DNA of 64,000 nucleotides, taken from contig JAHCMI010000023.1 of assembly GCA_019192545.1 (NCBI GenBank), forward strand, positions 1 through 64,000, written 5' to 3'. The notes under the pieces are model-generated. The model was not told the DNA's origin. It worked only from the letters and a program-made list of their open reading frames with translations, and searched no databases. The stretch's first letter is position 1; each line of letters starts with the position of its first letter. This DNA comes from Rivularia sp. MS3 (GTDB lineage: Bacteria > Cyanobacteriota > Cyanobacteriia > Cyanobacteriales > Nostocaceae). Shown here one piece after another: positions 1-2,215 of this stretch. A program made the translations under genes and the position numbers.

Positions 1-4
1 TTTT

Positions 5-187
5 GGCTCATCAGTTGTTAGTATGCTAAATTCTGAATAAAAATTACCGAAATATTTACTGCGTAGGGATTTGACATTTTATATGCTTAATTTTTGATAA
101 CTTTACTCTTTTTCCCCTACTGCCGACTGCCGACTGCCGACTGCCTAAAAACGACTACTTAAATAGCATACCAAGTGCTGAAGAACC
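5..187. mobile_element. 183-bp MITE, left copy
   Basis: Non-coding element identical, as reverse complement, to the copy at 1971-2207 apart from a 54-bp insertion in that copy. Its ends form imperfect terminal inverted repeats (GGCTCATCAG...GTATGCTA outside, GGTTCTTCAG...GTATGCTA inside). The inner flank AAACTTTT (188-195) fits an 8-bp target duplication, because the four bases visible before the element are TTTT; the rest lies outside the window. The interior carries GCCGACT heptads. GG-starting ends with AT-rich 8-bp duplications resemble ISL3-family elements, so mobilisation by such a transposase is an inference. Confidence 0.85.
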
Positions 188-355
188 AAACTTTTTTAGT
201 GTTGACTGCGCTAACAGCTTTTAAGTAAAAAATTTCTGTCAAAGAATCAAAAATCTTATTAGTTTTTAGTCAAACCCGGAAACGCGCTTGCGTTTCCAGA
301 CGATATTTTTTAGCAAAGCGGCATTAATTATTAACTAAATTTACTATGGCAGCTT

Positions 356-475
356 ATGAATAATACAGAATATCCTATAGCGGTAGAAATAAAAAACTCT
401 GAAGACTTAAATATAGACTTGCAGCAATATTGGTTTGCGCTTAAGCGTAGATTTTTACCTGCAATGGCAATTACA
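356..475 (+). pseudogene. Wzc-type polysaccharide co-polymerase, N-terminal remnant
   Basis: The reading frame from 356 encodes about 40 residues that look like the cytoplasmic start of cyanobacterial Wzc-type chain-length proteins: an acidic stretch, then DLQQYWFALKRRFLPA leading into the first membrane helix. The helix begins (MAITGGFF) and similarity is then lost; within about 30 bases the DNA resembles the C-terminal part of a GT2 glycosyltransferase in another frame. This is a junction remnant of a deleted or recombined wzc gene. An intact but different Wzc-type gene is at 15251-17299. The family assignment rests on this short motif, so it is moderate. Confidence 0.55.
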
Positions 476-497
476 GGTGGATTTTTTGCTCACTCCA

Positions 498-985
498 TCC
501 TACGTACTTTGTCGCAATCCCGTGGGAAACAATTCGGCAGCAGTAACTAGACGTGAAGTCTTTGAAGATATCAAGTTTCAAGATAATTTATACGGTAATT
601 TAGAAGACTACTACTTCGACGAGCGGTTGCATCGAGCCGAGAATATTGAATGCTGGTTAAGAATATCAATCTTGACTCATTGAAGACACGAAGGAATTCC
701 CGAAGTATTAACTTTTTACAGAATTACTTCTTTTGGACTTTCTTTCTGCAAATGCTCTGACACAGCTAAAAGCATTAGAAGACGTAGTAGAAAAAACTCG
801 TGTTTACGCTCCAGACATCGTTGCTCATTGTGAAAGGGCTGCAAAAGCTTACCACTTAAGGTATACGGTACGCCGTTTAGTCAGTTTGGGTGATGGATTA
901 ACTGCTGCCAAGCTATTCAACTAAGTTTTAGCAAATCACTGGCGCATTCTTTTAAGAGTCTTCGCTTCACTTAATGCCGTGAATA
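498..985 (+). pseudogene. GT2 glycosyltransferase, C-terminal remnant
   Basis: A decayed family 2 glycosyltransferase. One frame gives NPVGNNSAAVTRREVFEDI and HRAENIECWLRIS, the usual acceptor-side GT2 segment (GNGSA..., E-x-x-E-x-W). A TGA stop at 681-683 interrupts it, the same frame continues through GIPEVLTFYRITSFGLS, then a frameshift near 745 moves similarity to another frame (LEDVVEKTRVYAPDIVAHCE...), which a TAA at 922 interrupts before VLANHWRILL. The catalytic N-terminal half is missing and its place is taken by the Wzc remnant just upstream. No functional product is expected. Confidence 0.75.
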
Positions 986-1004
986 ATTTTATGTAACTAA
1001 TGTC

Positions 1005-1862
1005 ATGAAACAAGTAAAAATTTTGAATTTACAGATTCATAATCTGACAATGTCAGAACTTCTAAACAAGTTAAGGTTTGGTGGTGTTGTGTTTACCCCA
1101 AATTTAGACCATTTGATGAAAATACAAAAAAACTATCAATTTTATCTTGCCTATAAAAAAGCCGATTATGTAGTTTGCGATAGCAAAGTTCTGATGTATG
1201 CATTTAAGTTCTTAGGTACTCCTATTCAAGAAAAGATATCTGGCTCGGACTTATTTCCTGCTTTTTATAATTATTACAAGCACGATAAGCAAGTCAAAAT
1301 ATTTTTATTAGGCGGTATTGGAGAAACAGCTACACTTGCTCAACAGAAAATTAATGCAAAAGTTGGTAGAGATATGGTTATTTCAACTTATTCGCCTCCC
1401 TTTGGTTTTGAAAATGACGAGCAAGAATGTCAACATATTATTGAATTAATTAATAATTCCGGGGCAAATGTATTAGCTATTGGAGTTGGTGCCCCCAAAC
1501 AGGAATTATGGCTCGATAAATTTAAACATCGATTGAAAAACGTTAAAACATTCTTCGCGATTGGTGCGACAATTAATTTTGAGGCAGGATATGTTAAACG
1601 TGCCCCTAAATGGATGAGTGAAATTGGTTTAGAATGGCTCTACCGGCTTTTATGCGAACCTCAACGTCTGTGGAAAAGATATTTACTCGACGATATTCCT
1701 TTCTTTTGGTTAGTTTTAAAACAAAAATTGACACTTTATAAAAATCTTTGGGCGCAAGTTTGGAAATATCAAAATAGTCTTGCTTCCAGTCAACTCGCAA
1801 ATGCTAAAAGTAAAATTTTGGATTTAAAAAGTCAATCCACTAGTATCGCTACGCGGAAATAA
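1005..1862 (+). CDS. WecG/TagA/CpsF-family glycosyltransferase (GT26)
   Basis: A 285-residue member of the WecG/TagA/CpsF family, which transfers a sugar (N-acetylmannosamine-type in characterised members) from a UDP donor to a lipid-linked intermediate during assembly of surface polysaccharide. Family landmarks: TPNLDHLMKIQ (residues ~31-41), VVCDSKVLMYAF, KISGSDLFP, AIGVGAPKQELWLDK and the C-terminal GLEWLYRLLCEPQRLWKRY. Length is slightly above the usual ~250 because of a lysine- and serine-rich tail. No clear ribosome-binding site precedes the ATG. The gene lies between two oppositely oriented MITEs, after a GT2 remnant, so it may have been moved or isolated from its operon. The specific sugar cannot be read from sequence. 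Confidence 0.85.
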   Translation: MKQVKILNLQIHNLTMSELLNKLRFGGVVFTPNLDHLMKIQKNYQFYLAYKKADYVVCDSKVLMYAFKFLGTPIQEKISGSDLFPAFYNYYKHDKQVKIFLLGGIGETATLAQQKINAKVGRDMVISTYSPPFGFENDEQECQHIIELINNSGANVLAIGVGAPKQELWLDKFKHRLKNVKTFFAIGATINFEAGYVKRAPKWMSEIGLEWLYRLLCEPQRLWKRYLLDDIPFFWLVLKQKLTLYKNLWAQVWKYQNSLASSQLANAKSKILDLKSQSTSIATRK

Positions 1863-1970
1863 AAAGTAATAAGTAAAAAGCCTTATAGGATAAAGATTTT
1901 AACCGTTGCTAATGGGTACTTTATTTACGCCATGATGTACTAGATAGTAAATAAAAACGATAAATAATAT

Positions 1971-2207
1971 GGTTCTTCAGCACTTGGTATGCTATTTAAG
2001 TAGTCGTTTTTAGGCAGTCGGCAGTCGGCAGTGAACCCCATAAAAGTTTTTTCTTCTAAAAAACTTTTATGGGAACCCGTGGCAGTCGGCAGTAGGGGAA
2101 AAAGAGTAAAGTTATCAAAAATTAAGCATATAAAATGTCAAATCCCTACGCAGTAAATATTTCGGTAATTTTTATTCAGAATTTAGCATACTAACAACTG
2201 ATGAGCC
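1971..2207. mobile_element. 183-bp MITE, right copy, with 54-bp nested insertion
   Basis: Reverse-complement copy of the element at 5-187. It is flanked by a perfect 8-bp direct repeat AATAATAT (1963-1970 and 2208-2215), which shows independent transposition. A 54-bp insertion (2033-2086) in the GCCGACT heptad tract accounts for the whole length difference. The two copies are otherwise identical, so at least one transposition was recent or the copies have been homogenised. Confidence 0.88.
2037..2073. repeat. Perfect 16-bp-stem hairpin inside the MITE
   Basis: Perfect inverted repeat, CCCATAAAAG plus six T, loop CTTCT, then the exact complement. It is the core of the 54-bp insertion at 2033-2086. 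The element boundary duplicates GGCAGT on both sides, although the surrounding heptads make that ambiguous. It is probably a second, smaller palindromic element nested in the first. Confidence 0.8.
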
Positions 2208-2215
2208 AATAATAT

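What the first reader, a model, noticed from the sequence alone, without database searches (positions are those of the whole stretch)
1..2215. Two identical MITEs in opposite orientation bracket a wecG cassette, each with its own 8-bp target duplication
The 183-bp elements at 5-187 and 1971-2207 are identical apart from one 54-bp insertion. The right copy has the perfect 8-bp duplication AATAATAT; the left copy's visible flank (AAACTTTT, with TTTT at the window edge) fits its own. The ends begin GG and are bordered by AT-rich 8-mers, as in ISL3-family elements. Inverted identical copies 1.8 kb apart allow inversion of the segment holding wecG, or its movement as a composite unit.
Basis: partly seen in the sequence, partly recalled or inferred. 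Interest (0 to 1): 0.72.

Follow-up and report, generated by a model that had tools for sequence, protein, structure and literature searches.

The report
Two ISL3-type mini-transposons beside wecG
Two copies of a tiny, gene-less jumping element landed separately on either side of a sugar-transfer gene in a filamentous cyanobacterium; the element family looks recently active and has a likely full-size helper, but this kind of element is already known.

Summary
The elements at 5-187 (+) and 1971-2207 (-) are identical once 54 bp are removed. The right copy has AATAATAT on both sides. The left copy's flank is inferred to be the end of contig C129, which reads AAAACTTTT, so the predicted AAAC is met.

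The element is a family of about 20 young copies. Of 13 assembled through, 12 have exact 8-bp duplications; 7 more were paired from contig ends by exact matches. An ISL3 insertion sequence with near-identical ends and 8-bp duplications exists in same-genus genomes. In this genome its ends sit on 22 contig ends that pair into 11 insertions; its interior is unassembled.

The composite reading fails: in G003 wecG has the same place and orientation with neither MITE, and the outer duplications differ. The right copy's intact duplication shows that the assembled state is not inverted. These are two independent insertions of a MITE probably moved by ISL3: a new member of a known kind, like the 187-bp Microcystis MITE (PMC11448079).

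The parts
1..4 (.). TTTT, last half of the left copy's 8-bp target duplication; contig C90 starts here
   Evidence: window = C90:1-64000; contig C129 supplies AAACTTTT (adjacency inferred)
5..187 (+). left MITE copy, 183 bp, no insertion
   Evidence: identical to the copies on C158, C14, C2 and C1
188..195 (.). AAACTTTT, right half of the left copy's target duplication
356..924 (+). remnants of two EPS genes (first 44 codons of a Wzc-like gene, then part of a family-2 glycosyltransferase gene) joined across a ~6.3-kb deletion relative to G003; gene names are my reading of the G003 translations
   Evidence: no Pfam match for the three short window ORFs
1005..1862 (+). wecG/tagA/cpsF-family glycosyltransferase gene, 285 aa, in the same position and orientation as in G003
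   Evidence: Pfam PF03808; G003 colinearity
1844..1943 (.). another dispersed repeat (~100 bp) between ACTAG copies (1839-1843, 1939-1943), absent from the G003 site; it overlaps the last codons of wecG
1963..1970 (.). AATAATAT, left half of the right copy's target duplication
1971..2207 (-). right MITE copy, 237 bp = 183 bp + 54-bp palindromic insertion
2037..2073 (.). hairpin of the 54-bp nested insertion (16-bp perfect arms, 5-nt loop), in the GGCAGTC heptad array
2208..2215 (.). AATAATAT, right half of the right copy's target duplication

Best explanation
Both repeats are copies of a recently active, gene-less MITE with 24-bp imperfect inverted ends (GGCTCATCAGTTGTTAGTATGCTA / GGTTCTTCAGCACTTGGTATGCTA). 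Each inserted on its own into AT-rich intergenic DNA of an exopolysaccharide gene cluster and made its own 8-bp duplication. Shown: family, ends, duplications, uninterrupted sites in a relative, and an ISL3 insertion sequence in the genus with near-identical ends and 8-bp duplications, whose two ends also occur in this genome. Inferred: the ISL3 transposase binds the MITE ends and moves the MITE in trans; a ~47-bp palindromic repeat later entered the heptad array of the right copy. Flanking wecG is coincidence, not a cassette.
For: 43 matches in the genome. About 20 young copies: of 13 assembled through, 12 have exact duplications and one 7 of 8; the other 7 left flanks each find exactly one exact partner among the 7 right flanks. 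Among 380 non-cognate flank pairs 0 are exact and 6 are at least 7/8. 12 copies without gaps differ from their consensus by 0-2 bases. ISL3 partner: G006 L099 533-2138, 1606 bp, 415-aa transposase (PF01610 E 6e-66; NF033550 E 1e-96), duplication AAAAGTAT. Own genome: 11 + 11 contig ends pair one to one by exact 8-bp duplications and match the G006 element's first 34 bp at 100% and its last 46-55 bp at 84-87%. The 3' class encodes LLHWNFSS-stop, against LLNWYFDC-stop in G006. MITE ends differ from the own genome's IS end at 3 of 24 bases each. The uninterrupted left site aligns to G003 in one piece across the join, where G003 has AAAGTTTT once; the right site is a single AATAATAT there.
Against: MITE and IS share only the ends; the MITE interior is not seen in the IS, so it is not a simple deletion derivative of this IS. 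No intact transposase gene is in the assembly: PF01610 gave only a MerR-type gene, and the transposase protein matched one N-terminal fragment, residues 1-147, 69% identical. The 11 collapsed copies are read from about 50 bases at each end only, and their pairing, like that of 7 MITE copies, rests on the duplications themselves. No transposition was observed.
Confidence: 0.9

Rival explanations
1. The two MITEs and wecG form a composite unit that moved here together.
For: Two near-identical inverted copies 1.8 kb apart.
Against: Outer flanks do not form one duplication (AAACTTTT left, AATAATAT right). Each copy has its own duplication. In G003 the segment is at the same place and in the same order and orientation, without MITEs; G001 and G007 keep the same order (MITEs not looked for there).
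Confidence: 0.02
2. Recombination between the inverted copies flips 188-1970 as an on/off switch for wecG.
For: 129 bp and 71 bp of near-perfect inverted identity. The assembly breaks at the left copy, so a mixed population is not excluded. In Nostoc 210A, 3 of 10 ISL3 copies tested have matching ends but unlike 8-mers outside, which exchange between copies could explain.
Against: The right copy is assembled through and keeps its cognate duplication, which one inversion would break. Orientation is as in G003, G001 and G007. All 13 young MITE copies assembled through keep cognate duplications (12 exact, one 7 of 8), so no fixed exchange is seen among those; the other 7 cannot speak to this because they were paired by duplication.
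Confidence: 0.05
3. The MITE is moved by a transposase other than the ISL3 element (for example another family with 8-bp duplications).
For: Only the 24-bp ends are shared with the ISL3 element. Other families, such as IS6, also make 8-bp duplications (recalled).
Against: ISL3 elements with these ends and 8-bp AT-rich duplications are in the genus, and their ends are in this genome. I did not search for other transposase families, and the place list was cut.
Confidence: 0.08

Closest known systems
187-bp MITE of Microcystis aeruginosa PCC 7806 linked to ISL3 (PMC11448079; passages, and section 21)
   Same: Cyanobacterial, ~185 bp, no transposase, 8-nt target duplications, many identical copies, proposed ISL3 transposase whose ends begin GGCTCTTCG and match the MITE's, with the same duplication length
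   Different: Their end repeat is 9 nt, here 24 nt (imperfect); whether the sequences are homologous was not tested (their sequence was not in hand)
ISL3-family insertion sequences of Nostocales (e.g. L099/L175, L100/L197, L177-L186)
   Same: Similar 24-bp ends, 8-bp AT-rich duplications
   Different: 1.4-2.0 kb with a transposase gene of about 415 aa (broken in some copies); the MITE has neither the gene nor the IS interior
Nezha MITE of cyanobacteria, proposed to be moved by ISNpu3-like elements (passage in PMC3049150; reference in PMC10969869)
   Same: Cyanobacterial MITE with a proposed insertion-sequence helper
   Different: Sequence, ends and duplication length could not be compared; the paper is not held
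Small dispersed repeats of Nostoc, Elhai et al. 2008 (title seen as a reference in PMC3733652; content recalled; paper not held)
   Same: Small palindromic repeats reported inside heptad arrays and mini-transposons (recalled), like the 54-bp insertion here
   Different: The core here is ~47 bp, longer than the 21-27 nt recalled for SDRs; sequences not compared

Membership tests
MITE (non-autonomous, IS-related) | Short, multicopy, no transposase gene | tested here: met
   183 bp, 43 matches; no ORF of 50 aa or more is listed inside 5-187
MITE (non-autonomous, IS-related) | Terminal inverted repeats and fixed-length target duplication | tested here: met
   18 of 24 end bases match between the two ends (6 mismatches); 12 of 13 young copies assembled through have exact 8-bp duplications, 7 more were paired from contig ends by exact matches
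MITE mobilised by ISL3 | An ISL3 element with matching ends and the same duplication length | tested here: met
   L099: PF01610/NF033550 transposase, 8-bp duplication; MITE ends 3 of 24 bases from the IS end. Of 24 named loci tested (79 fetched), 17 show such ends with at most 1 mismatch in the duplication, 5 show ends with unlike flanks and 2 show no end pair
MITE mobilised by ISL3 | That element in the same genome | tested here: inconclusive
   11 + 11 contig ends pairing by exact duplications and matching both IS ends, the 3' ends coding the last residues of a transposase, plus one N-terminal fragment; no intact transposase gene assembled
MITE mobilised by ISL3 | Movement by the transposase | not testable with these tools
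   needs an experiment
Composite transposon around wecG | One duplication at the outer ends of the whole unit; unit absent from relatives' locus | tested here: not met
   outer duplications differ; wecG in place in G003 without MITEs
Nezha MITE | Sequence and end similarity to Nezha / ISNpu3 | not testable with these tools
   paper and sequence not held
Invertible switch | Both orientations occur | not testable with these tools
   assembly only; its state is uninverted

The most novel reading that the evidence does not exclude
The 54-bp insertion in the right copy is a very small mobile element in its own right: a ~47-bp palindrome with GGGAACCC-like borders, at 17 or more places in this genome, that enters heptad arrays and short GTCA-like sites and leaves a 5-7-bp duplication, so the right repeat is a mobile element inside a mobile element.
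Probability: 0.35. Interest if true: 0.45.

Novelty: new member of a known kind. Interest (0 to 1): 0.25.

Why it matters
It adds a recently active MITE family with a likely ISL3 helper in a filamentous cyanobacterium, and shows that 8-bp duplications can propose joins between broken contigs: 7 at MITEs and 11 at the insertion sequence here. It also shows that two inverted copies round a gene are not by themselves evidence of a cassette or a switch. Biologically it is ordinary.

Tried and rejected
Composite unit and fixed inversion: rejected by the duplications and by G003 synteny. PF01610 in the own genome at first suggested no partner: its one hit (C91) is a MerR-type regulator; the partner's ends are on contig ends. 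A named-genome scan for a degenerate MITE left end found 0 stretches (the window's own genome may be left out of that collection). Plasmids: 1 of 72,556 records matched, over 39 bases only, mostly the heptad array. Paper searches (open-licence PMC only) showed me no description of this element, but the papers on Nezha, on the Anabaena insertion sequences and on small dispersed repeats are not held, so an earlier description is not excluded. The 8 of 8 genus tally (own genome included) overstates the family: many of its matches are only the heptad array or one end. Complete elements of 165-235 bp with duplications (at most 1 mismatch) were seen in 5 of the 7 other same-genus genomes, G001, G002, G003, G005 and G006; only one locus of G004 and four of G007 were in that scan. 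The palindrome's own target duplication is weak evidence: direct repeats of 5 bp or more in 7 of 17 copies against 22 of 272 non-cognate pairs, and the window copy is uninformative because it lies in a tandem array.

Full report
Setting. The window is bases 1-64000 of contig C90 of a 9.19-Mb, 174-contig genome. Three same-genus genomes have contigs whose lengths (99,397; 61,615; 20,498 and 32,666) equal those of named records of Rivularia sp. T60_A2020_040, Richelia sp. SL_2_1 and Richelia sp. UBA3308, so a Rivularia/Richelia-type member of the Nostocales is inferred.

Observation. The left copy (5-187) and the reverse complement of the right copy (1971-2207) are identical after removal of 54 bp. 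The right duplication is AATAATAT on both sides. The window shows only TTTT left of the left copy because the contig starts there. Contig C129 ends with AAATTTTAAAACTTTT followed by the first 51 bases of the element. C129 is inferred to be the left neighbour, from this match and from G003, in which the end of C129 and the start of C90 are adjacent.

Family. The element gives 43 matches in the genome, partial ones included. I count 20 young copies: 12 copies without gaps and with 0-2 differences from their consensus (one is the window's left copy), one copy at 91%, the interrupted right copy in the window, and six further pairs of contig ends. Thirteen are assembled through on both sides: 12 have exact duplications, one matches at 7 of 8. 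The remaining seven, the window's left copy among them, have at least one flank on another contig; each of their 7 left flanks finds exactly one exact match among the 7 right flanks. These seven support the insertions but not the present physical linkage. Among 380 mismatched pairings of flanks none is exact and six reach 7 of 8. The left 8-mers are 151 of 160 A or T. Older relatives at 71-80% identity also carry duplications. At 13 of 14 sites tested no frame longer than 65 codons runs through the restored site; one interrupts a 329-codon frame.

Partner. Pfam PF01610 found no true ISL3 transposase in the assembly. The end pattern, however, was present in 16 of 21 genomes searched (own included), with 248 matches in all against 3 for the pattern read backwards; in one of the 16 (G012) it did not exceed that control. 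In G006 it brackets a 415-aa ISL3 transposase in a 1606-bp element with duplication AAAAGTAT. In G005, G004 and G001 the similar elements I read have broken frames or deletions. In the own genome 22 contig ends carry this element's ends in two classes of 11; every member of one class pairs with one member of the other by an exact 8-bp duplication. One class matches the first 34 bases of the G006 element at 100%, the other its last 46-55 bases at 84-87%, and that class encodes a transposase-like C-terminus. An N-terminal transposase fragment is on C87. The simplest reading is 11 near-identical ISL3 copies that the assembler could not place; their interior is unseen. The MITE ends each differ from the IS end at 3 of 24 bases. 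Of 24 ISL3 loci tested in named genomes (79 fetched; ten of the 24 from one Nostoc genome, three the same elements as in G004-G006), 17 show such ends with 8-bp duplications of at most one mismatch, five (L180, L182, L184, L190, L198) have ends but unlike flanks, and two (L176, L192) gave no convincing end pair.

Locus. I compared G003 with the last 19 kb of C129 and the first 20 kb of the window: they are colinear with gaps. Window segments 219-488, 490-954, 973-1843, 2208-2330 and onwards appear in that order and orientation. The left insertion site aligns across the join, and the right site has a single AATAATAT. So both MITEs inserted into an existing exopolysaccharide cluster. The window has also lost about 6.3 kb (most of a Wzc-like gene, a polymerase, a flippase, one glycosyltransferase gene and part of another) and about 1.2 kb (a Branch-type glycosyltransferase gene) relative to G003. 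Those gene names are my reading of the G003 translations; only window proteins and one transposase were scanned with Pfam. This leaves wecG as the one apparently intact gene between the MITEs.

Mechanism. Shown: separate insertions, 8-bp duplications, near-identical copies, partner ends in the genome. Inferred: the ISL3 transposase acts in trans. One inversion between the copies would put AAAAGTTT and AATAATAT around the right copy; it is assembled through with AATAATAT on both sides, which excludes inversion for the assembled state but not for a minority of cells.

Nested insertion. The 54 bp hold a palindrome with 16-bp perfect arms. A covariance model of five copies finds 30 matches, which I read as 17 places, in the genome; the five training copies match by construction, E-values are rough, and only 150 of 6346 first-look candidates were scored, so 17 is a lower bound. 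At least two of the 17 (this one and C133) lie in heptad-like arrays, by eye. Mobility is plausible but weakly supported.

Known relatives. PMC11448079 (passages; section 21) reports a 187-bp Microcystis MITE with 8-nt duplications and an ISL3 partner with ends GGCTCTTCG. PMC3542288 (passages) reports 147 MITEs of 77-541 bp in Anabaena sp. 90 for which no insertion sequence with matching ends was found. The present element is the same kind of thing as the first, in another lineage, so interest is low.

Noticed in passing
window 2027-2086: 54-bp palindromic insertion in the GGCAGTC heptad array of the right MITE; a related palindrome with GGGAACCC-like borders occurs at 17 or more places in the genome.
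   Followed up: partly
window 1839-1943: A ~100-bp dispersed repeat between ACTAG copies, absent at the G003 site, overlapping the wecG stop (protein 285 aa, 280 aa in G003); 5 other matches in this genome and dozens in the genus.
   Followed up: partly
window 356-972: Two deletions relative to G003 (about 6.3 kb and 1.2 kb) leave only fragments of EPS genes between the left MITE and wecG.
   Followed up: partly
L001 1394-1768; L017 1342-1719: A MITE appears to sit inside another MITE with similar ends. In L017 all four flanking 8-mers read ATAATTTT, which I do not explain.
   Followed up: no
L009 (C156:34529-34711): A young MITE copy interrupts an open frame of 329 codons of unknown function.
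   Followed up: no
L180, L182, L184 (Nostoc sp. 'Peltigera membranacea cyanobiont' 210A): 3 of 10 ISL3 copies tested have matching ends but unlike 8-mers outside, as exchange between copies or deletion would leave.
   Followed up: no
contig ends of G000: 8-bp duplications pair 7 MITE and 11 ISL3 contig-end pairs, proposing 18 contig joins, C129-C90 among them.
   Followed up: yes
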